Shown here piece by piece: positions 11,592 through 33,690 of a DNA stretch of 64,000 nucleotides (position 1 is its first letter; each line of letters starts with the position of its first letter). This DNA is from Okeania sp. KiyG1 (GTDB lineage Bacteria; Cyanobacteriota; Cyanobacteriia; Cyanobacteriales; Microcoleaceae): NCBI RefSeq assembly GCF_014132355.1, contig NZ_BLZO01000187.1, positions 164,416 to 228,415 on the forward strand. Direction: 5' to 3'. The translations under genes and the position numbers were made by a program. The notes beneath the pieces are model-generated. The model searched no databases. It was not told the origin of the DNA and worked only from the letters and a program-made list of their open reading frames with translations.

Positions 11592-14448
11592 TTAATTTTG
11601 AGAATCTACTATTAGTTCAGAATCATTATTTGTTTCACCTTGCTCATTAATTAATAATGCTACAGGGAAATGAGTCAATACATCTCTAATCCATAAAGTA
11701 TCTTCTCGTTCTCCTTTTAGTTGTTGTTGAGTAATTGCATTTTTCCACACCAAAGAAGAACCTGAAGGTAAACATATTCTAGTCTCACGCCATACTTGTT
11801 CGCCTAAAGGATTTTCTCCTTCATTAACTAATTTAGTTAATAATCTGGGAGCTATAATAATCGCCGTACTATCTCCCCATTTTCTAGAAAAAGCAACTAT
11901 ATGATCTTTCAAACTACCCATAACAATTAACTTTTGGTAATTTCCTCGTTGAAATAAATCCAAATAATCTCGGCGTGCCTGTAAAGCTTGGTAAATTAAA
12001 AACATTTTAATTTTACCAGTCTCTGGAGTTTGCAAAATTTCCTCAATAAATCCTAAAATATCTGACTCTATTTTTGTCTTAATTTCCTTCAGAAACTCTG
12101 CTCTTTTTTCAAAATCAACAGGACGACGGTTATCAGGGTCAACCAGACTCAAATCCCACAATTCTGTACCTTGATAAATATCAGGAACTCCAGGAGAAGT
12201 AAGTTTCAGAACAGTCTGAGATAAAGAATTAAAAACACCGTAATATTGAACCTTATGTTGTAGAGGTCGGAAAGCTGGTAAAAATTCATTATCTTCTGAT
12301 TTATTAAGTAGATGTTCTACAAACTTAATAAGTGAACTTTCGTAATCATCATCCGGTCTTAACCAACCTGTATTAACTTTTGCTTCTCGAATTGCTTTAA
12401 TAATATACTCTTTAATCCTTTCGACAAAAGTTGGATATTCACTTTCATCAACAGGAAAAGCACCTAACAAAGTCTGATATAAAAAGTATTCATCATTAGG
12501 TGCAGGAACATCTAAACCCCCTACACAATCTTTTTGAGGAGCATTAATTTCCTGCCATTTTTGTAGATAACTTTCCCATTCTTCAGGAATTTCTGATAGT
12601 ACATTAATTCGCGTTCTGACATCTTCCCCACGTTTTGTATCATGAGTAGAACTTCCACTCATAGTATGAGGCCAATACGCAATACGATGTTGATTAAATC
12701 CATGAAAATCTTCAACTGAAACTCCAAATTTACTAGGAGTTGAACCAACTTCATTGAGAGAAATAAGTCGATTATAAATATATAAAACAGTATCTTCTAC
12801 ACCCTTTGCCATTAAGGGTCCAGTAAATTGTTGTAACCGCATCACAAAGTGTAGCCATTTATCTTTATCTTCCTGGTTTAAATGCTCATCAAATTCTAAC
12901 AAAAAACTTTTCAATAAAACTCAATTCATTTAAAAGTTCATTGATAAAGAAAGGAATTTTCTCTTTCGTTTTAGCAATTACTCTCTGAATACATTCTCGA
13001 TCTGCCTTACTAACTCCTTCTTTACTAACATAAGTCCGATACACCGGAAACACCGACATAACTTCTACTAAAGCAGCTTTCAAGCCAAAAATAGTAAAAT
13101 CGCTGGCATATCGATATTTACTAGAAATATCTTTAAGTAAGTGAGCTAAATTATCAATATCTCCGGCTAAATGTTTATTAATAATCAGCCTTTGATTTTC
13201 ATCAGCTAACTGCCCATAGTTAGAAGTACCTTTAATAAACCGAGAATAAATCCGATCGAATTCTTCCTCATTAAAATGGTCACAAAAAAGACCATTAACA
13301 TAGTTTAAAAAATCGTAACCTGTAGTTCCTTGAACTGGCCAATTAACAGGTAAATCTTCGCTGGGTTCAAGAATTTTTTCGACAACTATATAGGGAGCAT
13401 TTGCTTTTTCTCTTATTCTGTTTAAATACTGAGCAGGAGAGTACAGTCCATCAATATGATCGATTCTCAAACCTGTAAATTTTTTCTGTTTTAACATTTC
13501 TAAAATTAGAGCATGAGTAGTATTAAATACTTGCTCGTCTTCTACTCTGACCGAAATTAAATCATTTACTGTAAAAAATCGTCGGTAGTTTAATTCTTCA
13601 TTACCCACTTTCCAGAAAGATAAGCGAAAGTATTGCTCGGATAATAATTTATCTAATAGGTCAAAACTTTCTGGCTTTCCCGGAACCCCGTTAAAAGTCT
13701 TTATATTTTCTTCAATGAATTCTTTAATATGTGGATTTTCATTCCATAATTCCCACAACATTCCTTTGATGAAGCTAATTTGATCATACCTTTCTCTACC
13801 CTCAGATCCAGAAGGGATATATTTTAAACTATAGAGAACTCCTTGTAACTTAACAAAATCCTGATTTTTTCTGCCTAATTTATTTCTTAATTTGCCGATA
13901 TTGTAGGTTAAAACTTGAGTATAAGAATCAATTCTAATGGGAAATTGATGGTCATAATAGTTAACAGTTAATCCATTTTGACCATAATTAAGTTTTAACT
14001 CTCCACTTTCCAAACAATCTCCATAAAATTTACCTAAAAAAGGTGCTAAAACTCTACCTTTGATACCTTCATAAGGATGATTCCAGTCAATATCAAAATA
14101 GTCACGATATTGAGATTCAGGACCATTTTCTAAGACATCTACTAGAATATGATTTTGGCTGCCAAATGCCATGTGATTAGGCACAATATCTTGTAGCCAT
14201 CCCATTTCATTACTTTTGATTTCTGCTGCTAATGCAGTAAATTTTTCTTGGCCTCCTAATTCAGGATTAAGTATATTAGGATTGACTACATCATATCCAT
14301 GTTCGCTACCTGTTTTTGCTTTAAATATAGGAGAAGCATAAATATCAGAAATTCCTAGTTCAGCTAAATATTGAACTATAACTTTAGCTGATTCAAAGCC
14401 AAAATTAGGAGTGAATTGAATTCTATAAGTTGTAATGGGAATTCGCAT
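11592..14448 (-). CDS. treY: Malto-oligosyltrehalose synthase, one frameshift
   Basis: GH13 enzyme that isomerises the reducing-end glucose of maltodextrin to an alpha,alpha-1,1 (trehalosyl) linkage. The 5' piece (12889-14448) has DIVPNHMAFG (residues 87-96), GLRIDHIDGLY (nucleophile Asp330) and VVEKILEP (acid Glu357). The 3' piece (11592-12914) has STHDTKRGEDVRTR (transition-state Asp) and GVPDIYQGTELWD. The two frames meet at a homopolymer, six A on the plus strand at 12901-12906; removing one base gives one ~950-residue protein, the normal TreY size. It may be a sequencing error or a real inactivation. TreZ is encoded upstream on the same strand, 545 bp away. Confidence 0.9.
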
Positions 14449-17076: not shown

Positions 17077-18357
17077 CTAGAACAAAGATAATTGAACCCC
17101 AGTTTCAGAAGTTTCTTGTCTCACAGGCTGACCAACGTCTAAGCCTCCACAAGCAGACAAGATGATACCCACCTCGTTTAATGCTTTATTTAATATGTTA
17201 ATTGCAGCGTTCTCGTCTCTATCTAAAACCGTTTTACACTTAGGACAAGAATGAGTTCTGACTGATAAAGTTTTAGGTACTTTTTGACCACAATTACTAC
17301 AATGCATGTGATGTATTGTGAGGGTGTACGGGCGAATGGCCATTCGCCCCTACTTACATGAACACCGCGTTTTACCGCTACTGCATTCAATTTTTCAATA
17401 AAAGCTCCCCAGGCTACATCGTAAATTGATTTTGAGAGTTTAGTATTTTTAGCTAAACCTTTTATATTAAGGTCTTCTACAGCAATTAAATCATACTCTT
17501 TAACTAATTTATGAGCAGTTTTATAGTGGAAATCTTCTCTTTGCCTGGCAATATGTTGATGTAGTCTAGCTATTCTATTTTGTGCCTTTTTCCAGTTGTT
17601 AGAACCAATTTCTTTTCTAGCTGCTTTACTTTGTTTTCTAGCTAAATTAGATTGTGCTTTTCTATAGAAATTTGGAACAGAAACAGTCTCACCAGTATTA
17701 GTAGTTAAAAACTCTTTTAAACCTACATCAATACCTACAGAATTTTTGATATTATCTGTAGGAATTAAACTAGGAACTGACTTATCTTCCAAACTAAAAC
17801 TAATATAATAGCCGTCAGCTTTTTTAGTTATAGTTGCTGTTTTGATAACAAACCTATCTGGAATTGGTCTATGAACTATGACTCGAATCGCACCAAACCT
17901 CCTAGTAATTATTTGTTTTCCATCAAATTTAATTACTGCTTTGGGATGATTGACTCTACTGAAACAAAATGACCTTAACTTTCCTGATTTTTTAAATCTT
18001 GGTCGTCCTCCACGTTTACCAGTTTTATCAGGTATTAGCCAACGCTTCCAGGCTTTATCTAACCTTTGTAAGTTAATTTGTTGAACTTCGTATGGAGATT
18101 TCTTTATAGTCAGGAAATAGCTTTTTTGTCTGTTTAAGTGCTGATTGCTGAAAATAATAATCTGGCAACTCTTGAATCTCGCCAATAGGACATGAAATTA
18201 ATGAACAACGGTCAACTTGACATCTAGTTCTATTTAACCAATCTAGTCTTTGACCTAAAGCATAATTCCAATGCCGTCGTAATAGTTCCAGCCAATAATC
18301 AATTTTGACTGACTGTTTTGGGGTTAGCTTGATTTTATAGCAATGAGTAATTATCAT
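17077..18357 (-). pseudogene. tnpB: tnpB (IS605 OrfB/IS1341-like), copy 1, two frameshifts
   Basis: RNA-guided nuclease of IS200/IS605 elements, in three frames. 18357-18073: MIITHCYKIKLTPKQSVKID to LFPDYKEIS. 18185-17223: VQQINLQRLDKAW, GIDVGLKEFLTTNTGE (RuvC Asp), IAVEDLNIKGLAKN (Glu). 17343-17077: CSNCGQKVPKTL, CPKCKTVLDRDENAAINI (zinc ribbon and last Asp), ending VQLSLF. The first break is an extra base in GAAATCTCCATACG. The second is a 19 bp palindromic insert (GGCGAATGGCCATTCGCCC) before the zinc ribbon. Both lesions are also in copy 2 at 43278. All catalytic residues are still encoded, but a normal product is impossible. Confidence 0.88.
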
Positions 18358-19199: not shown

Positions 19200-22100
19200 T
19201 TAATACTCATCTTCCGCCCATTCTGTAACAGGCAGAATTGAAATAGCAGCACCTGGTTCACTATTGGCAACTGTTTTGAGAGTCTCTGCCAGCCAGTAGA
19301 ATAATTCACGGAATTTCAAACTATTGAGCAACTTAGGTGGTGTGTTTAAAGGAGCAATTTCTCCCAAGCTAATCATATCTGCTCCTTGAACAGCAACTAC
19401 AAAAAAGTTGAGTTTATTCATTTCTACAGCTTGTCTTATACGCTGTGCCGATTTTTGCCAATTGTCAGTTGGGGGGCTACCTATAATCAAAAATACCCAG
19501 GGTTTTTTAGAATTCTGATAATTTTCTATTTCCTCTAATGCTAAGTCAATTCCTTTGCCTATGGTAGTTGTACCTTCGGCTTTCAGGGAAGATGGAACAA
19601 ATTTATCCATACTGACAAATTCTTGAACTGTTCGTCCGTTACTATTACAGGTAATGATGGCTAACTCTATATTCTGGGATGTGTCAGTGTTGGGTTCAAA
19701 TTCTCGTTTAAAAGAAGTAATTCCAGCATTTAAGGAATCTATACGCTGACCATACATTGAACTAGATGTATCCAATAGCAAGACGACTGGAATCTTAGGT
19801 TTAGCTGATAAACTTTTCTGTTCTTGGTTTTGGGAAAGATAATTTTTTGTGCCTGCAGTGGAAAGTAATGGTGTCGATGTTCCTGGATTAAGGCGATTTC
19901 TCAGTGCTTCTAAATGATCTAATTGCAATAACTGAAAATAATTTGATGTTGGATCTCCAGAACTACTATTGCCACTTCCAGTCATCATAATTTGAGGATA
20001 ATTGATTTCCATTTGAGCCATTGCATCCGCCCATTTTCCTTGTGTTTCTATTTGGGTATAAAGTTCAGGACTAAGAGCATTAACCCTGGCACGAAAAGCA
20101 TTTATATCTATTTCAGCAAATTTTTTCCTGCGATTTATTTCATCATCGGTATGCAGTTTATTTGCCTTTACTATTGCCTCCTGTTCCGCAAAATGAGCTT
20201 CGCCTTTCTTTTTAGCAATATATACGTCTGTCTCAGCCTGAGTTCGTTTTTCTAGAGCTTTTGTTTCTTCCTTTGTTTGAACCAGTTGTTGGTTTATTTC
20301 TTCAGTTCGTTTTTTTTCCTCAGCCAACTTAGCCTCTTCTTTAGTTTTGATTTGTTCTTGTTTTAAATCTTCTAATTCTTGCCTGCGTTTATCTAAATCC
20401 TCTGGTAAATCAATTGCATTAATATATGTGCCCTCTCCTTCCACACCATTTTTCTTAAGAACATCCTCAATATAAGCTTGAGCTGCATCTTGAGAATTAA
20501 CTATTGTTTCTTGAAACTGAATCGCTGTTTTACCAGTAGCAGCTTGTTTAAAGTGACCTTCAACAACTCCGGTTAATACACGAACCACAAGATTTCTAAT
20601 AGCCGGATATTTCTTAATAGTTTTACCATCATCCATTGTTATTTTTTCTACTTCTGCTACTTGCGCTCCAATTTGGCAAACCATCTTCGGTGCATTTTCA
20701 GGAGCAATACGAATCATCTGGGTAAACTGAACTTGGAATTCACGGCCATCGGATGAAGTTAGCTTCAATATTTTGAGCTTGGCGTCATAATTCAAAGGAT
20801 GTTTTTCTTCATCTGACCAATTCAGTATGATTTGAGTAGTTGGCACTAACTGCACTTTTTTAATTCTGGTGTTAATAGGGTAGTCACCAACCAGAAGAGG
20901 TTTTTTTTCAACCCCCTGGTATCCTCCTGGAACTAATTGGTATGTAGATTTATTCTCATCAACAGATGTATTCTGATTATCATCATTTTTGTCATACTTT
21001 TTCCCAACATAAGAGATAACAACTCCCACCTCTTCATTCTCAATTCTAGTTATTGGTACTTGTTCAACTTCAACAAACCAAGGATTTAGTTTCCATTCTC
21101 CTTCTTTGATAACCTCTTCTTGTAATCCTATATATCCTCCTAAATCTAGGAATTTTTGTGCATTTTGATAATTATCATGTCCCTCAATGATCGGTCCGGC
21201 AATTACATCTTTAGGGAGTGTTTTCCCCACATTTGTTGTCACAATACCAATTTTACCAGAGCTAATTTTGTAAATTTTTAGTTTCTTTGGTTCTTCCTTA
21301 TATTCATTGGCATTTGCCGTCGTAATGACAGTAAAAAAATCGGTATTTATTTTATAGTCACCTTCACTCAAAATAGCAAGTTGCTTACCTTTTTGTCCTC
21401 CATTTTTCAGAAATGCTTCAGCATCTTGAAAATTATTACATTCCACCACTTTACCTAATGTTTGTTCATCAGACTTAGAAGCTCCTTCGTTGGCAATTAC
21501 CAGTCCTATTTCTCCTTGAGGAATCCTAATAATAGGAACTTTACGAATAGTGAATATTTCAGGATTAATGTAATAGGTTCCTGTTTCTAAAGTAGCAATT
21601 TGTTTACCTGCTTGCCCCCCATTATCAAAAAAGGCTTGTGCATCCTGAAAATTATTACAATCAACTTTCTTAGCAAAGTTTTTTCCCTCTTCTAGAGGCT
21701 TTCCATATTTTGTTTCTACTAACCCAATTTCTCCAGGACTAATTGTCGTAGCAGAGACTTTTTTAATCTTAAATATATCCGTGTTAATGTAATATTTACC
21801 TGCTCTTAGAGTAGCAAGTTGTTTACCAGCTTGACCCCCATTATCAAAGAAAGCTTGTGCATCCTGAAAATTATTACAATCAACTTTCTTAGCAAAGTTT
21901 TCTCCCTGTTCTAGAGGCTTTCCATCTTGCGTTTCTACTAAGCCTATTTCTTCTGCAGAAATATAAGTAATAGGAACTTTACAAATCCTAAATAGTTCGG
22001 TATTAATTTGATAGGTTCCTTCCGTTAAAATAGCAAGTTGGTTACCTCTCTGACCTCCTTTTCGGATAAACTCACTTCCATCCTGAAAGTCATCACAATC

Positions 22101-22831
22101 AACCACTTTTTCAAAGCTTTCTCCTGGTTTTAAAGAGACTCCATCTTTAGCTTCTACTAAACCTATTTCTTCTGTTCCAATTGATAATTGTTCGACTGGA
22201 GTAATCTTAAATAGGTCAGTATTAATTTTGTAAGTTCCTGGCAGTAAAATATCTATTTGTTTGCCAACTTGACCTCCATTATCAAAGAAGGCTTGCGCAT
22301 CCTGAAAATTATTACAATTAACTTTATGACCAAAATTTTTACCAGGTTTTAAAGGAGAGCCATCTTGAGCTTCTACTAATCCTATTTGATGGGCTTCAAT
22401 TCTAGTAACTTTAACTTTCCGACACTTAAACATTTCTGTATTGATTTGATAAGTACCATTGGTTAAAATTGCTCGTTGTTTGCCTATTTGACCTCCATTA
22501 TTAAAAAAGCTTCTATATCTTGAAAGTTATTACAATCAACTACTTTCCCAAAGTTTTGTCCTAGTTCAAGAGGATTACCATCCTTAGCTTCTACTAATCC
22601 AATTTCTTCTTGACTAATACTTATAACTGGTACTCTAGTAATCGTATACTGCCCAGGAAAATATCCAAAATGCGGTCCTGGTTCAAGAATTTTAGCTTGA
22701 ATGCCTGGTTCTCCATTCAAAGCAATAATTCGACCAGGAGGAAGGCGAAGGGAAAGATTTCGAGCCCATTTTTTGTTAACTATTCCAATTTCATTATTTT
22801 CAATCAAAATAAATCCAGTCAACTTCGGCAT
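19200..22831 (-). CDS. Giant SPFH/flotillin-like protein with C-terminal vWA domain, one frameshift
   Basis: About 1210 residues once a missing base in an A/T run at 22503-22508 is restored (pieces 22831-22484 and 22433-19200). The N-terminus PKLTGFILIENNEIGIVNKKW is typical of bacterial SPFH (Band-7) proteins. Then come about eight ~70-residue beta-rich modules (EIGLVEAKDG...CNNFQDAQAF..GGQ.GKQ....GTYKINT), the core SPFH part (TTQIILNWSDEEKHPL to GTYINAIDLPEDL), a coiled coil rich in E/K/Q (~680-790 of the long frame), and a vWA domain in the last ~200 residues (LLLDTSSSMYG). The MIDAS third motif is LIIGSPPTD, lacking the usual Asp. It is probably a membrane-associated oligomeric scaffold. 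Last gene of the vWA/kinase cluster. Confidence 0.85.
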
Positions 22832-23362
22832 TTTAGTTCTCCAAACAAAGAAAATTAGGACATAAGTATTCAGGTGCTGGGGTTGACAAATAATTATATC
22901 TATGTATTTATCGCTTTCCAGAAACCTTTTAGTCTCATTTATAGATTTTTTTAGTATCCATTAGATACAGTTTTCAGTTCTGAAACACTGAATCTGGACA
23001 AAATGAAGAATAATGTAACCTCAAGACCTGAGTGCTTACATTAAGACAACACTACCTATGAGCACAATTACGAAAATTAGTATCATAATTTTTCCTAGTA
23101 AATCCTGCTATAACTAGGGTGAGAATGAAATTTTAAAAAGCTTCTGAGTTTCTGATGAGTTTCCGAGTAATTAGAGTTGAATAATTTATAATTTAAGGCT
23201 TTGATGGAGTAGTATCTTCATTGAGAAATACTATAAAAGTATCCTCTATCAATGTCTGTGTTTGAGATTTATTTGCCAAAATTAAAAGAAGTAATAGTAG
23301 CCATTATAAGGAAGATGGCTAATTTTCTTAGCATTAGCTGATATTTCATTTTTTGTTATTCA
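22832..23362. other. Non-coding gap inside the vWA/kinase cluster
   Basis: 531 bp of AT-rich DNA without a recognisable gene or repeat. The size suggests that the SPFH gene has its own promoter. Confidence 0.5.
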
Positions 23363-24443
23363 TTAATAGGCTTGATTTACAAGTTTAAATAAACGCGGGA
23401 AAAGACACTTAAAAGTTTCTTGCCAGCTTCTCCAACTTATTTCGTTAGTATTTTGCTTTGGAAAGCTTAAAGAAGGAAGATGTCCTGGTTTTGCATTTCT
23501 AGAAAAATCCAAGTTATCATACCTTTCGATCCAGCTTCTCCCGTCAGACCAACCTACTCTTGTAGCAAATTTCTCTCGGTAAATTTTTAATTCAAATGGC
23601 TTCTGCTTTCCCCAACATTCATCCCAAATTTTTGCTTGAATACTAAAGCCGAAACGATCGTTACTGTATTCTAGCCAGAGTCGATCTATGGTTTTTAAGG
23701 CTTCATCAGGTATTTTGTTAATATCTTTTTGTTCTAACCATGTTATTCTTTCTCTATCGTTAGGAATTTCAATACTGTCAGCAATTTCCATCATTAATCT
23801 CATTGTTTCTAGATCGGCTTTTTTCCACTGTTCATTTGCTAGATATTCTTCTAAATTTTTATAGATTGGGTATAAAATTTGGTTAGTATTATCAGTAGAC
23901 ATCTCCGAAAATGCCGATTCGTGAACAGCAGTATCAGGATGTGAAGAGCTTTTCTGGAAATGTTTAGTTGAATTTTCTGGGGTAGGGGGATTACATTGAG
24001 AATTCTTTCTTAGTAATTGAGGTATTAAGTTCTTTGGTATTCCTGCTATCTCAATTGGAGGATATGGATGTTGATCTTCTCCTCCTACTGGTTTGGGGGG
24101 ATAATTAGTTTTTTCTAGTTCTAATTTATCCCTAATTTCTTTTAACAAAGTAAAGCCTTTGTTTTCCTCATATAATTTACTAAAAATTTTTGATAATTCA
24201 TCTAAACTTAGAGCTTCGCATCGACTTAAAAATTCAGGTATAATTACTGACAGAGGTTCATAGATATTCAAATTTGCAATATTAAACCCTCCCAGTTTTA
24301 TAACATTTATCAACAGTCTGGGATTACTACCATAAAATCGTGAAAGTTTATTAATGATTTCTTCGTAAATATCTTCATTTTCACCGATTTTCCGTCTCTC
24401 TTTTAATCTCTTCTAGAATTTCTGGAAATGATAAACTAGCCAT
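23363..24443 (-). CDS. Adaptor-domain protein with C-terminal GUN4 domain, one frameshift
   Basis: About 359 residues if the frame is repaired near 24401-24404; the ATG at 24443 gives MASLSFPEILEEI, and the long open part starts at 24313. Residues ~20-110 are a helical domain (LSRFYGSNPRLL, SVIIPEFLSRCEAL, EENKGFTLLKEI) that also occurs in the next gene upstream. After a low-complexity linker comes a GUN4 domain: LANEQWKKADLETMRLM, IDRLWLEYSNDRFGFSIQ, RVGWSDGRSWI and KPGHLPSL. GUN4 binds porphyrins and stimulates Mg-chelatase; in cyanobacteria the domain is often reused in signalling proteins. The 10 bp spacing to the upstream gene indicates co-transcription. Sensing by GUN4 is inference. Confidence 0.8.
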
Positions 24444-24453
24444 AAATATTGTC

Positions 24454-25092
24454 TCATCCCCCTATTTGATTAATAACTTGTTCTTGAAGTATTAAGCTTT
24501 TTTCCTTTAAACGTTTACTACCTTTATTTTTTTGACTTAAAGTATTAAATATTTGAAGTTGTTGCTTTAATTCCTGAGCAGAACACCTGGTTAAAAAGTC
24601 ATAAATAATAACTGGTAAAGCTTCATTATGGCGAAGTTCTTCCACAGGAAAATTAGTAGAAATATGTCTTAAAAAAAGTCGGGAATCTGTCTTATAAAAT
24701 TTGCAAAGCTCATCAGCTAAAACTTCATCTGTAATCAACCCACTTGTTTCTAACTTTTCCCGATATGGTTCCATCAAAAAAGGAAGGTTTTCTTCTAAAT
24801 CTGGACTAGATAGTAATTTCCTGTTTTGAGCCAGAATAGAAAAACAAATTTCCATTCCCAAGATAAATTGTTCCCTTAATTCCTTTATATCGGTTCTAGC
24901 TTCAAATATTTCTCCAAGAGTTTCACGACTCACGTTTTGCACTTCGTTAATCATTGCATCTAATTCAGCTTGACGCTTTTCTGTTTGTTCATCTTCATAG
25001 AGACTAAGAACACCTTCAAAAGGAGCGGCTAGAGGACCAGCAAATACACGAACTGCCTTAGCTGAAGCTTTCAGATAGTTTACCATTATCAA
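24454..25092 (-). CDS. Helical protein with adaptor-like C-terminal domain
   Basis: 212 residues, no transmembrane segment except a mild hydrophobic start (VFAGPLAAPFEGVLSLY). Residues ~35-75 look like a coiled coil (EDEQTEKRQAELDAMINEVQ). The last ~85 residues (LCKFYKTDSRLFLRHI, LPVIIYDFLTRCSAQEL, SQKNKGSKRLKEK) match the N-terminal domain of the GUN4 protein encoded 10 bp downstream, so both probably dock to a common partner or to each other. The function is unknown; the sequence is all helical and polar. Start at 25092; an internal ATG two codons later is equally possible. Sits between the kinase and GUN4 genes. Confidence 0.7.
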   Translation of the reverse strand: MIMVNYLKASAKAVRVFAGPLAAPFEGVLSLYEDEQTEKRQAELDAMINEVQNVSRETLGEIFEARTDIKELREQFILGMEICFSILAQNRKLLSSPDLEENLPFLMEPYREKLETSGLITDEVLADELCKFYKTDSRLFLRHISTNFPVEELRHNEALPVIIYDFLTRCSAQELKQQLQIFNTLSQKNKGSKRLKEKSLILQEQVINQIGG

Positions 25093-25156
25093 ATACCTAA
25101 TTGTTTTAACTGTTTTATTCTCAATAATAACTATTATTTTTAGCTATTTATTTTCT

Positions 25157-26266
25157 TTAAATTTTCACATCTTTTCTCTTAAAATTTTCCCTTTTGAACC
25201 AGCCAACTTTAATTAGCCATAATATTGCGGGTGAACCTTGAGGAACAAATATATCAGAACCTATTTTCTGTTTTCTTTCACACCAGTAACATTTTCCATA
25301 ACTTTTTGCATAATAATGTGCTGCCTCAGTAGAACAGAGACCTAAATTTTTTATCGCCTCATCAAGTGCCTTCACCCAGTCCTCTGCACTTGGTCGATTA
25401 TTCGGATTATTATGTCCGTCATCAAAACATTGATAAAAACATTGTTGAAGTTGAAAATGTAAAATTTCTAAAGGCATTGATAGTTTTCCTGGACGGAGTT
25501 GAGAATTGATTCCATAGATCCAATTTCCCTCTTGGATTAGTTTGTTAATATTAGGTGGATTTCCCTCTCCTATCCATTGCCCAGAAAAAGGATGGTAGGC
25601 AAATAGTAAAAGCCAAATAATAACAGTTAAGGCAAAACGATCTTGAAGCTCAGAACGTGCCACATTTTGCACAACTTCTCCTAAATCTTCTGGTGCAGTA
25701 TATTCTCCAGAAGTTACCGGACAGAGATAAGTTTTTCCCGTGTCTGAGTCAAAAACTTGAAATGAGTCTGTATCAATAATAGAAACAAATCCTTGCTCAT
25801 TAACTAGCAGGTTATCTGGTTTTAGGTCACCAATTACATATTTTTGAGCGTGTAAATATTGGATTATTGATGCAAAAATCAAGGCGATTTGATGCAACTT
25901 GTACCAGGTAAATTTAGGAAAATTTTCTTTTCTTTTGCGAGGATTATAAGCATTAATTATTGGCAGACTTTTTTTGATTTCAGGCATAATAAATCCACAG
26001 CACTGATTATCAGAATCTATTAGTAAATCTTTTGGCCAAGCAATTGCAATACGATCGTCAGAAGAAAGATTTTGAGGTGAGCTTTTCAGCATTACCTTCA
26101 GTTTATTAACCTTTTCTCGGCTAATTGAATTATCATAAATTTTAGCTAGAAAACCTACCTTATTAGTTCGATAAATCTTGGCTTCTCCACCACGACCAAT
26201 TTCTTGATGAAGCTCAATTCGCTCTTGATTATTTAGAGTTTGAATACTAACCATAATGCGAAGCAA
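25157..26266 (-). CDS. Protein kinase, YegI/TerY-P type
   Basis: 369 residues. Glycine loop IGRGGEAKIY (23-32), Lys42 in FLAKIY, catalytic loop YVIGDLKPDNLLV (Asp147; the usual HRD is GD), metal loop IIDTDSFQV (DTD instead of DFG) and GEYTAPEDLG. The GDxxPxN/DTDSF pattern is that of the kinases paired with TerY-like vWA proteins in stress and conflict modules. The C-terminal YGKCYWCERKQKIGS has only two cysteines, perhaps half a zinc ribbon. It lies 70 bp downstream of the vWA gene on the same strand. The start may be the second ATG (26254, MVSIQTL). Targets are unknown; the neighbours are natural candidates. Confidence 0.85.
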   Translation of the reverse strand: MLRIMVSIQTLNNQERIELHQEIGRGGEAKIYRTNKVGFLAKIYDNSISREKVNKLKVMLKSSPQNLSSDDRIAIAWPKDLLIDSDNQCCGFIMPEIKKSLPIINAYNPRKRKENFPKFTWYKLHQIALIFASIIQYLHAQKYVIGDLKPDNLLVNEQGFVSIIDTDSFQVFDSDTGKTYLCPVTSGEYTAPEDLGEVVQNVARSELQDRFALTVIIWLLLFAYHPFSGQWIGEGNPPNINKLIQEGNWIYGINSQLRPGKLSMPLEILHFQLQQCFYQCFDDGHNNPNNRPSAEDWVKALDEAIKNLGLCSTEAAHYYAKSYGKCYWCERKQKIGSDIFVPQGSPAILWLIKVGWFKRENFKRKDVKI

Positions 26267-26336
26267 AGTATATAGACATTTTTACCCGTGAGAAAAACTG
26301 TCATCCTTTTTTCCAATTTATTTACAAACATTATTT

Positions 26337-27002
26337 CTATGCTCGAACCTGTGCCCATCCATCAATAGGAGGCAAATTAATTTTGTCATCAACTTGACTT
26401 GTAGAAACTCTTGTCAACGAAGCAGAAAGCCAACTAAACAATTCTTGAAATTTTAATCCATCAAGCATAACGGGTGGAGTATTAGGATGAGCGATATTCC
26501 TGAGAAAATTCAGGTTAGCACCTTGAACTCCCACTATAAAAAAGCTAAGTTTTCGCTCGTCAACAGCTTTTTTCACAAGTTTAGCTGCTTCCTCCCATTT
26601 ATCTGTGGGAATACCATCTGTAATTAAGAATACCCAAGGTTGATAATAGGAAATGCCGTATTCTTTATAGATAGATTTGCGAGCTTCTAGCTTATTAAGT
26701 GCTAAATCAATTCCTTCTCCCATAGCAGTTGAGCCAGATGCTATTAGTTTTGGTGGAATGAATTGGTCAATGGTAACAAAGTTTTGAACCATTTCCGCTG
26801 AATTATTAAAAGTGATAATGGCCACTTCAACCCTCAGAGATGCGATGGTATCCTTTTCAACTTCCTGTTTAAAAGCAGCTATTCCGCTATTTAATTTTTG
26901 AATTCGCTCCCCCGACATTGACTTAGATGTATCTAGAAGTAGGATAACTGGGCAGCGTGGTTCAGGATTGTCAGGAAAGTTAATGTCTTCTTCTAGAGTC
27001 AT
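26337..27002 (-). CDS. TerY-like vWA domain protein
   Basis: 221 residues, a stand-alone vWA domain. The MIDAS is complete: DTSKSMSG (Asp24, Ser26, Ser28), SGSTAMG (Thr92) and LITDGIPTD (Asp129). The vWA domain of the SPFH protein is closely similar throughout (LNSGIAAFK/LNAGITSFK, HPNTPPVMLDGLKFQELF/APLNTPPKLLNSLKFRELF), and both end with a proline-hydrophobic-W motif (LPPIDGWAQ / ILPVTEWAED). The TerY family pairs with a kinase and a PP2C phosphatase; the kinase is next, but no PP2C is visible. It is the first gene of the cluster, 416 bp from glgX. Probably cytoplasmic. Confidence 0.88.
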   Translation of the reverse strand: MTLEEDINFPDNPEPRCPVILLLDTSKSMSGERIQKLNSGIAAFKQEVEKDTIASLRVEVAIITFNNSAEMVQNFVTIDQFIPPKLIASGSTAMGEGIDLALNKLEARKSIYKEYGISYYQPWVFLITDGIPTDKWEEAAKLVKKAVDERKLSFFIVGVQGANLNFLRNIAHPNTPPVMLDGLKFQELFSWLSASLTRVSTSQVDDKINLPPIDGWAQVRA

Positions 27003-31500: not shown

Positions 31501-33690
31501 ATGACTCAATGTTTAAATCCTGACTGTTTAAAACCTAACCCCCCACAAACAAAATTCTGTCAAAGCTGTGGTGAAAAATTAGTTTTAGCCGAACGTTATC
31601 GCGCTCTAAAAATTATCGGGCAAGGAGGTTTTGGCAGAACTTTTCAAGCAGTAGATGAATATAAACCTTCAAAACCTTTTTGCGTAATTAAACAATTTTT
31701 TCCTCAAGCACAAGGAACTAAAACTTTAGAAAAAGCTGCCGAATTATTTGCTCAAGAAGCTGAACGTTTAGATGGTTTAGGTAGACATCCACAAATTCCA
31801 GAACTTTTGGCATATTTTACTCAGGATAATCGACAGTATTTAGTACAAGAATTTATCGACGGGCAAAATTTACAACAGGAATTAGAAGAGTCGGGAGCTT
31901 TTGATGAAAGTCAAATCTTAGAGTTATTAAGAAATTTGTTACCTGTCTTAGAATTTATTCATTCTCAACAGGTAATTCATCGAGATATTAAACCAGAGAA
32001 TATTATTAGGAGAAAGAATGATAATCAATTAATATTGGTAGATTTCGGGGCGGCTAAATATGCCACTATGACTGCTTTAGCTGTGACGGGAACTGTTATT
32101 GGTTCTGCTGGATATTTTGCACCAGAACAAGCTTTAGGAAAAGCAACTTTTGCTAGCGATATTTATAGTTTGGGTGTGAGTTGTATTCATTTATTAACTC
32201 AAGTGGGAGTTTTTAATTTATTTGATGTGACTGAAGGTAACTGGGTATGGCGAGATTATTTAAAGTCGAGTGTGAGTGATGAAGTTGGAGAAATATTGGA
32301 TAAAATGATTGTCGGAGCAACTAAAAAAAGGTTTACAAATGTAAGAGAAATTTTGTCTCTTATTCAGGTTTCTACCCAAGTGAATGATTTGGAAAAGCAA
32401 CTGAGGAGTGAGCAACCCAGAAGACAAGAAGTTGAAAGAAGGTTAAGGTCGGGACAAATTCCACTAGATTATTACCGAATTTTAGGTTTACCAATTCAGG
32501 CTAGTGCTGAACAGTTACGGCAGGCATATCGAGACCGGACTCAGCAGTTTCCTAGAAGGGAGTATTCTGAGGCCACAATAGTTGCTCATAAACAGCTCAT
32601 AGATGAGGCTTATGCTGTTCTTTCCGATCCTGAACAACGCCAAACCTACGATAGCTTTTTAGCTAAAACTTATGAGCCAGAATCTGAGTTTCACCCCAAT
32701 ACTCCCACCATAGAAATAGAAAATTCACAATTTGTGGGAGCAATCCTGATTTTACAGGAGCTAGGAGAATATAAGCTGGTACTAAAACTTACTTATCCTT
32801 ATCTTACTAATAATAGTATTGCGATTAAAGATGGATATTTTGGAGACCCAGCATTAGTTTTGCCAGATATTTTCCTCACAGTTGCTCTAGCTAATTTAGA
32901 ACTCGGCAGAGAGGAATGGCAACAAGGACAATATGAAAATGCAGCCACAGCATTAGAAGCTGCTCAGGGATTATTGCTCCGAGAAAATCTGTTTGTCCAA
33001 GTGCGAGAAGAAATACAAGCTGACTTTTATAAGCTACGTCCTTACAGAATAATGGAGCTAATAGCACTACCAGAGGAAATGGCTCTAGAGCGTCGCCGTG
33101 GACTAGAAATTCTTCAAGATATGTTGAATGAACGAGGAGGAATTGATGGTCAAGGTGAAGATAACTCTGGACTTGGGGTAGAGGATTTTCTGAAGTTTTT
33201 TCAGCAGCTACGTCAATACTTAACTATAGCAGAGCAAAAGAAATTATTTGAGGCTGAAGCTCGTCGTCCTTCGGCAGTTCTTACATATCTAGTAGTTTAT
33301 ACTTTTCTAGCTCAAGGATTTGCTCAAAAACAACCAGCTTTGATTCGTAAAGCTAAGTTGCTGTTGATGCAGTTAGGTCGGAGTCAAGATGTAAATTTAG
33401 AGAAGTCTGTCTGTGCTTTACTTTTAGGGCAAACTGATGAGGCTATTCGTACATTAGAACTTAGCCATGAAAAGGAACCTCTATCTTTTATTAAGGAAAA
33501 TTCTCAAAAATCTCCAGATTTATTACCAGGTCTATGTCTTTATGCTGAACATTGGTTGACAGAGGAGATATTTCCACATTTCCGTGATTTGTCTGACAAG
33601 TCAGCTTCTTTGAGAGACTATTTTGCAGATCAGCAGGTTCAAGCTTATCTAGAAGCTTTACCAATAGAAGCAGAGGCAGCTAGGAGCTAG
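31501..33690 (+). CDS. Ser/Thr kinase fused to ZipN/Ftn2 (ARC6-like), C-terminal part missing
   Basis: 729 residues in four parts. 1-30: a four-cysteine ribbon (CLNPDC...FCQSCG). ~33-300: Hanks kinase with GQGGFGRTF, VIHRDIKPENII, DFGAAK and APEQ. ~320-385: a J domain starting IPLDYYRILGLPIQASAEQL, which is how cyanobacterial ZipN/Ftn2 begins, including PRREYSEATI and YAVLSDPEQR. 400-729: the helical TPR-like body of ZipN, up to YLEALPIEAEAARS. The transmembrane helix and the C-terminal IMS domain, needed by ZipN/ARC6 to anchor FtsZ at the membrane, are absent. MITE B begins 31 bp after the stop. Either a genuine signalling offshoot of the division protein or a truncated gene. Confidence 0.85.
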   Translation: MTQCLNPDCLKPNPPQTKFCQSCGEKLVLAERYRALKIIGQGGFGRTFQAVDEYKPSKPFCVIKQFFPQAQGTKTLEKAAELFAQEAERLDGLGRHPQIPELLAYFTQDNRQYLVQEFIDGQNLQQELEESGAFDESQILELLRNLLPVLEFIHSQQVIHRDIKPENIIRRKNDNQLILVDFGAAKYATMTALAVTGTVIGSAGYFAPEQALGKATFASDIYSLGVSCIHLLTQVGVFNLFDVTEGNWVWRDYLKSSVSDEVGEILDKMIVGATKKRFTNVREILSLIQVSTQVNDLEKQLRSEQPRRQEVERRLRSGQIPLDYYRILGLPIQASAEQLRQAYRDRTQQFPRREYSEATIVAHKQLIDEAYAVLSDPEQRQTYDSFLAKTYEPESEFHPNTPTIEIENSQFVGAILILQELGEYKLVLKLTYPYLTNNSIAIKDGYFGDPALVLPDIFLTVALANLELGREEWQQGQYENAATALEAAQGLLLRENLFVQVREEIQADFYKLRPYRIMELIALPEEMALERRRGLEILQDMLNERGGIDGQGEDNSGLGVEDFLKFFQQLRQYLTIAEQKKLFEAEARRPSAVLTYLVVYTFLAQGFAQKQPALIRKAKLLLMQLGRSQDVNLEKSVCALLLGQTDEAIRTLELSHEKEPLSFIKENSQKSPDLLPGLCLYAEHWLTEEIFPHFRDLSDKSASLRDYFADQQVQAYLEALPIEAEAARS

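What the first reader, a model, noticed from the sequence alone, without database searches (positions are those of the whole stretch)
19200..27002. vWA / kinase / adaptor / GUN4 / SPFH-vWA cluster: a candidate undescribed system
Seen: five co-directional genes encode a TerY-like vWA protein, a YegI-like kinase (GDLKPDN, DTDSF), a helical protein, an adaptor-GUN4 protein and a ~1210-residue SPFH protein with its own vWA domain. Known: TerY-type vWA, such a kinase and a PP2C phosphatase form the TerY-P modules linked to stress and conflict responses; vWA-adaptor systems are enriched in multicellular bacteria. Inference: here the PP2C is missing, and a membrane scaffold (SPFH) plus a tetrapyrrole-sensing-type domain (GUN4) replace it, so this may be a membrane-stress or anti-phage signalling assembly.
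Basis: partly seen in the sequence, partly recalled or inferred. Interest (0 to 1): 0.85.

Follow-up and report, generated by a model that had tools for sequence, protein, structure and literature searches.

The report
Vault-like scaffold and kinase gene cluster
A cyanobacterial gene cluster joins a large repeat protein, predicted to resemble the shell protein of animal vault particles, to a kinase, a GUN4 protein and adaptor proteins; relatives of it carry cell-death-type enzymes, so it may be an undescribed cell-defence or cell-suicide signalling system.

Summary
The five genes exist on one strand (19200-27002), but the GUN4 and SPFH genes each have a frame break in this assembly. Comparison changes the reading. 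The recurring core is a GUN4 gene beside an SPFH gene with 73-residue repeats: 15 of 21 annotated cyanobacterial loci, against 0 of 8 chosen loci of the ordinary one- or two-repeat SPFH. In 10 of the 15 the GUN4 protein carries, or lies beside, a CHAT, caspase, TIR or kinase domain; the window's copy keeps the tail of a lost CHAT domain. The vWA and kinase are a TerY-P pair without PP2C, which 26 of 27 other vWA genes examined have beside them. In Trichodesmium adaptor, SPFH, vWA and kinase form one protein. The window's SPFH protein shows no membrane helix; its model (pLDDT 80) matches major vault protein in the 12 best PDB hits, and repeat-only vault crystals too, but no sequence kinship of the repeats was found. 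The GUN4 domains lack the bilin motif. Best reading: a fast-changing conflict or cell-death signalling platform on a vault-like scaffold. Function and assembly are untested.

The parts
26337..27002 (-). stand-alone TerY-like vWA protein, 221 aa; DTSKS and LITDG (MIDAS) kept
   Evidence: in the tree beside the vWA next to SPFH in Symploca SIO2E6 (90/75), inside a 7-row group (96/86) with the five SPFH-fused vWA domains
25157..26266 (-). YegI/TerY-P-type protein kinase, 369 aa (listed start TTG; an ATG lies 4 codons in), IGDLKPDN and IDTDSF kept, C-terminal CYWC
   Evidence: 54% identical to the kinase of a vWA-PP2C-kinase triad in G231, 57% to one in G411
24454..25092 (-). HEL: predicted all-helical protein, about 210 aa; N-terminal helical half plus C-terminal adaptor domain
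   Evidence: no Pfam family; C-terminus related to the GUN4 protein's N-terminus; helical model, low confidence, pLDDT 45
24128..24442 (-). adaptor domain at the N-terminus of the GUN4 protein; frame break near 24390 (limits approximate)
23996..24055 (-). remnant: C-terminal tail of a lost CHAT caspase-like domain (about residues 87-106 of the ORF)
   Evidence: aligned to the adaptor-TRADD_N-CHAT-GUN4 protein of Okeania SIO3B5 (domains)
23465..23863 (-). GUN4 domain, paralogue type, no LxNxLR bilin motif
23167..23326 (-). decayed former 5' end of the SPFH gene (signal/TM region), read as non-coding
   Evidence: 72.5% identical over 160 bp to the coding start of the Okeania SIO3I5 SPFH gene
20994..22831 (-). 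SPFH protein: N-terminal repeat array, period 73 residues (six units in the main ORF, a seventh across the frame break), no TM; two ORFs broken at a T6 run near 22505
   Evidence: (35 of 48 ten-residue blocks at pLDDT 90 or more)
20394..20993 (-). SPFH/Band_7 domain
19824..20393 (-). long predicted helix and linker after the SPFH domain
   Evidence: helix 678-785, mostly pLDDT 50-71
19200..19808 (-). C-terminal vWA domain of the SPFH protein; DTSSS kept, third MIDAS acidic residue lost (LIIGSPPTD in place of LITDG)
   Evidence: dS 0.61-0.73 against 0.10-0.21 for the rest of the main ORF

Best explanation
The cluster is one local version of a fast-changing cyanobacterial signalling module of the conflict / programmed-death type. 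Its recurring core (shown by comparison) is a GUN4-domain protein encoded beside a repeat-rich SPFH protein. The SPFH protein is predicted to be a vault-like scaffold: six to seven 73-residue beta repeats, an SPFH 'shoulder', a long helix, no membrane helix in this version. Inferred steps: the scaffold oligomerises into a ring or half-shell through SPFH and coiled coil; its C-terminal vWA domain and the small helical adaptor domain (shared by HEL and the GUN4 protein) recruit the other parts; the GUN4 protein delivers an output domain (CHAT, caspase, TIR or kinase in relatives). In the window the CHAT protease has been lost, and a TerY-P vWA-kinase pair without its phosphatase is present, so the likely output here is phosphorylation of scaffold or adaptor-bound targets, switched by the stand-alone vWA. 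Trigger unknown; phage infection or severe stress is the favoured guess.
For: Core: GUN4 gene co-directional and within 330 bp of the repeat-rich SPFH gene in 14 loci, within 1.6 kb in one more = 15 of 21 loci L087-L107; 0 of 8 chosen canonical SPFH loci. Output swapping, 10 of those 15: CHAT (L087), TIR-CHAT (L089), caspase in the same protein (L091, L093) or in a separate upstream gene (L092, L095), kinase-GUN4 (L098, L100, L101, L105). Some match PADLOC component models: chat E 1e-20 (L087), caspase E 5.6e-18 (L093), ThsB TIR E 1.2e-17 (L089). CHAT remnant in the window. Fusion: Trichodesmium adaptor-SPFH-vWA-kinase in one 1204-aa protein between HEL and GUN4 genes. vWA domains of the system group together: the five SPFH-fused ones 100/99, Trichodesmium fused with Symploca SPFH-adjacent 100/100; kinases of that last pair 99/99. 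Vault-like fold. Same glgX-treZ site with different content in related genomes. TIR, caspase, kinase, Band-7 and GUN4 domains are parts of published conflict systems (PMC7159879, PMC8195603, passages).
Against: No functional data. Frame breaks in two of five genes here, and decayed copies in related genomes, could mean the locus is dying. dN/dS is only moderately low for SPFH (0.34-0.51 by part and partner), 0.45-0.82 for GUN4 and 0.38-1.44 for HEL. The separate five-gene set was seen only in this genome. 6 of 21 repeat-rich loci show no GUN4 gene nearby (four Moorena, one at a contig edge, one broken). Five of the 15 GUN4-SPFH loci (L090, L094, L102-L104) show no effector domain in the GUN4 protein. 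No sequence kinship to MVP repeats, and the helix after the SPFH domain is modelled with low confidence. No PADLOC model covers a window protein except through parts of the kinase or GUN4 domain.
Confidence: 0.5

Rival explanations
1. A TerY-P stress-response module: the vWA and kinase do what TerY-P does in metal or envelope stress, and the SPFH protein is a flotillin-like membrane-domain organiser; no cell death or phage role.
For: vWA and kinase are TerY-P in sequence, and relatives in gene order. The SPFH relatives with one or two repeats have an N-terminal TM; 8 of 20 scored repeat-rich relatives keep one, and DUF4407 (TM-bearing) is adjacent or fused in 9 of 21 loci.
Against: Among the 21 loci the core recurs mostly without separate TerY-P genes, but with caspase, CHAT, TIR or kinase domains in or beside the GUN4 protein in 10. 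The window SPFH protein has no TM by hydropathy.
Confidence: 0.22
2. A degenerating or accidental gene group: several conflict genes piled up at the glgX-treZ site and are now decaying, with no working system in this genome.
For: Two frame breaks, a decayed SPFH start, a lost CHAT domain, and broken or shortened copies in related genomes (G418, G420, G421, G422); an IS605-type transposase gene lies inside the vWA part in Okeania SIO3I5.
Against: The stand-alone vWA has dN/dS 0.18 against G231 and Symploca, though dS is near saturation (1.4-1.6); the 1077-aa frame stays open; TreY is broken at a like T6 run, which suggests sequencing error; fusion and tree evidence for linked relatives.
Confidence: 0.18
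3. A tetrapyrrole-status sensor: GUN4 reads bilin or porphyrin levels and switches the kinase, tying photosynthetic state to protein phosphorylation.
For: A GUN4 gene lies beside SPFH in 15 of 21 loci; PMC7159879 proposes tetrapyrrole-gated effectors in general (passage). The N219G change in Chlamydomonas GUN4 keeps porphyrin binding (PMC10156173, passage).
Against: No LxNxLR motif in 17 of 17 GUN4 domains of this kind compared, against its presence in the genome's best-scoring GUN4; PMC10156173 ties loss of the Asn to loss of bilin binding and finds it lost in paralogues (passages).
Confidence: 0.08

Closest known systems
TerY-P triad (TerY-like vWA, PP2C, kinase with zinc ribbon)
   Same: vWA and kinase resemble triad members (vWA 64-65%, kinase 54-57% to the closest seen); 26 of 27 other stand-alone vWA genes examined lie beside a PP2C gene, 21 of 27 also near a related kinase
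   Different: no PP2C here, kinase ends soon after one CxxC, and the pair sits with SPFH, GUN4 and adaptor genes. The triad, its link to restriction systems, and an antiphage TerY-P-like module (Gao 2020, cited there, not read) are described in PMC11090510 (passages)
vWA-centred ternary conflict systems of Kaur et al. 2020 (VMAP, iSTAND)
   Same: vWA domains combined with Band-7 scaffolds, GUN4, TIR and small adaptor domains; mostly in multicellular bacteria (PMC7159879, passages)
   Different: no AAA/MoxR domain found in the cluster's proteins; SPFH protein carries a repeat array; vWA is TerY-type
Bacterial TRADD-N and death-domain adaptor systems of Kaur et al. 2021
   Same: Okeania SIO3B5 relative has adaptor-TRADD_N-CHAT-GUN4; TIR, caspase, kinase and GUN4 are among that paper's effectors (PMC8195603, passages)
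   Different: no Band-7 mention in that paper's text (0 occurrences of 'band'); the adaptor domain matches no Pfam adaptor or death-fold family
Major vault protein (MVP)
   Same: predicted order of beta repeats, SPFH-like shoulder, long helix; 12 best structural hits, and repeat-only crystals 3gnf/3gf5/3gng hit too
   Different: repeat is 73 residues with a short helix; Pfam gives Band_7, not MVP_shoulder or Vault; repeat profiles do not detect bacterial MVPs; C-terminal vWA is added
Canonical cyanobacterial SPFH protein with one or two repeats (about 700 aa)
   Same: closest sequence family, mostly 36-42% identity
   Different: N-terminal TM, one or two repeats, no vWA, no GUN4 neighbour in 8 of 8 chosen loci

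Membership tests
TerY-P triad | TerY-like vWA gene | tested here: met
TerY-P triad | YegI-type kinase gene next to it | tested here: met
TerY-P triad | PP2C phosphatase gene in the same cluster | tested here: not met
   none within 3 kb of either vWA in the window; five PP2C_2 matches in the genome, all on other contigs; one beside another TerY-like vWA on C40
TerY-P triad | zinc ribbon at the kinase C-terminus | tested here: inconclusive
   one CxxC pair only, seen by eye
vWA-MoxR ternary systems | MoxR AAA+ ATPase partner | tested here: not met
   Pfam of the cluster's proteins shows no AAA domain
Major vault protein | MVP shoulder / Vault repeat sequence families | tested here: not met
   Band_7 only, E up to 1; no PF11978 match in this genome
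Major vault protein | fold: repeats, shoulder, cap helix | tested here: met
   on a predicted model whose long helix is of low confidence; full-length TM-scores low (0.19-0.29), repeat-only crystals 0.54-0.58 by target length
Major vault protein | assembly into a hollow shell | not testable with these tools
   needs protein and microscopy
GUN4 (bilin-binding regulator of Mg chelatase) | LxNxLR bilin motif | tested here: not met
   (exact pattern)
SPFH / Band_7 superfamily | Band_7 domain over the Pfam cut-off | tested here: met
   36.6 bits, cut-off 23.6
Membrane-anchored flotillin-like SPFH protein | N-terminal TM segment | tested here: not met
   (hydropathy only)
Known anti-phage systems in PADLOC | cluster proteins matched over their length by a system's component models | tested here: not met
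   only partial hits through the kinase and GUN4 domains (PD-T4-6, mad6 and others); relatives' CHAT, caspase and TIR parts do hit component models
Published effector-associated adaptor domains (EADs) | match of the adaptor domain to a Pfam adaptor or death-fold model | tested here: not met
   E up to 10; fold not tested because the model was poor

The most novel reading that the evidence does not exclude
Cyanobacteria build vault-like protein shells from repeat-rich SPFH proteins and use them as switchable platforms for immune or cell-death signalling, loading exchangeable caspase, CHAT, TIR or kinase outputs through GUN4 and small adaptor domains; vault particles and prokaryotic conflict systems would then share an architectural principle.
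Probability: 0.28. Interest if true: 0.92.

Novelty: new variant of a known kind. Interest (0 to 1): 0.72.

Why it matters
Vaults have an unclear function (PMC13347060, start of abstract in the listing). A bacterial scaffold of like architecture that is genetically tied to caspase-, CHAT- and TIR-type outputs would give a tractable system in which to ask what such shells do, and would link SPFH scaffolds, TerY-P phospho-signalling and GUN4 paralogues, for whose function no assays are known (PMC10156173, passage), in one testable module.

Tried and rejected
HEL as a known domain: no Pfam, NCBIfam or PADLOC match at the thresholds used (halves gave only chance-level hits) and a poor model, so its fold stays open. 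Sequence kinship of the SPFH repeats with MVP: profile comparison gave only the coiled-coil end (E 4.3e-6, probability 86.8%), repeats at E 0.11, and a 99-unit repeat HMM found nothing in four bacterial MVPs; a PDB sequence search reached Erlin (E 0.27) and MVP (E 3.6) only over the coiled-coil region, below a chance hit at 0.15. So I claim fold and architecture, not descent. GUN4 as a bilin sensor: motif absent. 'PP2C replaced by GUN4/SPFH': rejected by the Symploca loci. Zorya link of the Symploca 328-residue/OmpA-like pair: only a weak partial ZorB hit. Literature: in the listed results of searches I saw no paper on a GUN4-SPFH repeat system or on vault-like SPFH proteins of cyanobacteria; long hit lists were shown only in part and the library lacks most subscription papers, so this is weak negative evidence.

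Counts and dropped rows: one search scored only two candidates per genome in nearly every genome listed, so it undercounts. One search kept the best 80 of 193 relatives, and says records very near the window's genome may be left out; 23 of the 80 are titled as cyanobacteria, of which 21 (L087-L107) were annotated in detail. L115 and L125, the other two, have two-repeat-type hits and were not annotated for neighbours. L108 (Bacteroidetes) was annotated but left out of the 21; L109-L166 were used only for length, TM and repeat counts and some as alignment rows. The eight canonical control loci and the 27 vWA loci were fetched from among the best hits, not drawn at random; L063 (broken canonical SPFH) was left out of the eight. 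L107 is fragmentary and was not scored for TM. TM scoring is a hydropathy window only. The repeat count is a pattern count.


Full report
Observation. The window lies in a 10.98 Mb cyanobacterial genome (G000); its glgX neighbour is 98.9% identical to that of Okeania sp. SIO3B5, so the host is probably an Okeania. Two of them are interrupted: the SPFH gene is two ORFs broken at a T6 run, and the GUN4 gene's start is in another frame. The TreY gene in the same window breaks at a T6 run as well, so sequencing error is a fair guess, not shown.

A recurring core. Searching 386 cyanobacterial genomes with the SPFH protein gave matches in 97. In six of them (G000, G155, G312, G320, G360, G018) the match begins within the first 250 residues; the others match the one- or two-repeat form or a vWA domain alone. 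A scan of a collection of 84,980 species with a profile of the repeat-rich form gave 193 relatives, of which 80 were kept; 21 of these (L087-L107) are cyanobacterial, and were annotated. In 15 of 21 a GUN4 gene lies next to the SPFH gene on the same strand, 14 within 330 bp. In eight chosen loci of the one- or two-repeat form no GUN4 domain was found in the fetched flanks, 1.5 to 16 kb a side. Of the six without it, four are Moorena with DUF4407 fused to SPFH, one (Crocosphaera) ends 1 kb upstream and has a caspase-domain gene downstream on the other strand, one is broken. By genus name, 19 of the 21 are from filamentous genera (my knowledge of the genera, not a call).

Swapped outputs. Pfam on the GUN4 proteins or their neighbours shows adaptor-TRADD_N-CHAT-GUN4 in Okeania SIO3B5 (its GUN4 domain is cut short), TIR-CHAT-GUN4 and caspase-GUN4 in two Symploca, caspase-GUN4 in Microseira, a separate caspase gene upstream of GUN4 in aff. 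Roholtiella and Nostoc, and kinase-GUN4 in two Calothrix, Scytonema and Hassallia: 10 of 15. The other five (L090, L094, L102-L104) show no effector domain beside GUN4. G235 has TIR-GUN4, HEL and adaptor genes in a row with no SPFH gene in the 19 kb fetched. The window's GUN4 protein aligns to the SIO3B5 protein over the adaptor and again from the last turns of CHAT onward: it has lost TRADD_N and the protease but kept the tail. Exchange of TIR, caspase and kinase domains behind constant parts is what Kaur et al. describe for conflict systems (PMC7159879 and PMC8195603, passages read).

TerY-P parts. Of 27 other stand-alone TerY-like vWA genes in fetched loci, 26 have a PP2C gene within 3 kb and 21 a related kinase within 7 kb; the window has vWA and kinase ORFs 70 bp apart and no PP2C. 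In Symploca SIO3C6 the order is GUN4 protein, SPFH-vWA, a 328-residue protein without family, an OmpA-like protein, vWA, PP2C, kinase-GUN4; in Symploca SIO2E6 SPFH-vWA is followed by vWA and PP2C at the contig end. In Trichodesmium GBRTRLIN201 (G320) HEL is followed by one protein of 1204 residues with adaptor, three repeats, SPFH, vWA and kinase, then GUN4. A tree of 30 vWA domains puts the five SPFH-fused ones together (100/99), next to the window's stand-alone vWA and the SPFH-adjacent one of SIO2E6 (group of 7, 96/86; midpoint root), and pairs the Trichodesmium fused vWA with the SPFH-adjacent one of SIO3C6 (100/100); the kinases of that last pair also group (99/99). All five SPFH-fused vWA domains lack the third MIDAS acidic residue (motif as given in PMC11090510, passage).

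Locus dynamics. HEL occurs in 3 of 386 genomes of the phylum sample and 10 of 62 of the family. In the window and in G418, G420, G421 and G431 the cluster, or its remains, sits between glgX and treZ; in G422 the glgX side is seen and the contig ends on the other. Content differs in each: among these six only the window has the separate vWA and kinase genes there. HEL has an in-frame stop in G418, G421 and G422. In G431 (SIO3I5) an IS605-type transposase gene lies inside the vWA part. The C-terminal vWA of the window SPFH gene is far more diverged from SIO3B5 (dS 0.61) than the repeats and core (dS 0.10), as if that module had been exchanged.

Scaffold. The repeats have a 73-residue period; by pattern count they run from one or two in the canonical form to 12 in Symploca. 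Neither window ORF has a TM segment by hydropathy, and 12 of 20 scored relatives also lack one at the N-terminus while 8 have one; DNA upstream in the window is a decayed match to the signal/TM-coding start of the SIO3I5 gene. The AlphaFold model of 868 residues, on 28 sequences, has mean pLDDT 80.2; 35 of 48 ten-residue blocks of the repeat region are at 90 or above, while the long helix after the SPFH domain is mostly at 50-71. Foldseek against PDB ranks major vault protein in the first 12 places (E 1.8e-17 to 6.1e-14), above Erlin, prohibitin, stomatin and flotillin (best E 1.7e-9); MVP crystals that contain only repeats R1-R7 are hit at E 6.6e-8 to 2.5e-6 with TM 0.54-0.58 by target length; the 50 rows shown of 276 matches are all MVP or SPFH-family proteins or complexes with them. 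Full-length TM-scores are low (0.19-0.29) and rmsd values meaningless over such long bent chains, and sequence profiles do not join the repeats to MVP. MVP shoulder domains occur in 4 of 373 cyanobacterial genomes searched, not in this one. I conclude 'vault-like architecture, predicted', not 'a vault'.

GUN4. The genome holds 27 GUN4 matches. The best-scoring one, taken as the true GUN4, has the LxNxLR bilin motif; the window domain and 16 relatives do not, as reported for paralogues in PMC10156173 (abstract and passages). Sensing of bilin is therefore unlikely; porphyrin binding is open.

Mechanism and confidence. Shown: the gene content, the GUN4-SPFH core, the exchange of outputs, the TerY-P kinship, the fusion, the CHAT remnant. 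Predicted: the vault-like fold. Inferred: oligomeric platform, recruitment through adaptor and vWA domains, a phosphorylation output here, a conflict or death role. I give the whole reading 0.5, with stress-module, decay and tetrapyrrole-sensor rivals as listed.

Noticed in passing
window 12889-12911: TreY gene is split into two frames at a T6 run, like the SPFH gene; suggests homopolymer errors in this assembly.
   Followed up: partly
window 17077-18357: Transposase-like gene of IS605 TnpB type (by eye) broken into overlapping ORFs next to the cluster.
   Followed up: no
window 31501-33690: 729-residue protein with a zinc-ribbon-like start, kinase domain and a stretch that reads like a J-type or ARC6-type domain (by eye).
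   Followed up: no
L057 5813-9661 (G262): 1282-residue protein ending GUN4-GUN4-TerY-like vWA, encoded beside an AAA ATPase gene.
   Followed up: partly
L069 7895-10489 (G235): TIR-GUN4, HEL and adaptor-plus-unknown-domain genes in a row with no SPFH gene in the 19 kb fetched.
   Followed up: partly
L089 12928-14543: Symploca: 328-residue protein with hydrophobic segments (by eye) and an OmpA-like protein (weak partial ZorB hit) between SPFH-vWA and the TerY-P triad.
   Followed up: partly
L096, L097, L099, L106 (Moorena): SPFH repeat protein fused at its C-terminus to DUF4407; in L092, L095, L102-L104 DUF4407 is the next gene instead.
   Followed up: partly
L088 5004-6671 (Crocosphaera): Caspase-domain protein with a HATPase_c_4 domain, 137 bp downstream of SPFH-vWA on the other strand.
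   Followed up: no
L071, L075, L086, L196: TerY-P kinases of cyanobacteria carry variable C-terminal domains: TPR-PDZ, FGE-sulfatase repeats, WD40, pilin-like.
   Followed up: no
L167-L170, L172-L175: Major vault protein genes (MVP_shoulder) in 4 of 373 cyanobacterial genomes, one of which (G018) also has a repeat-rich SPFH protein.
   Followed up: partly
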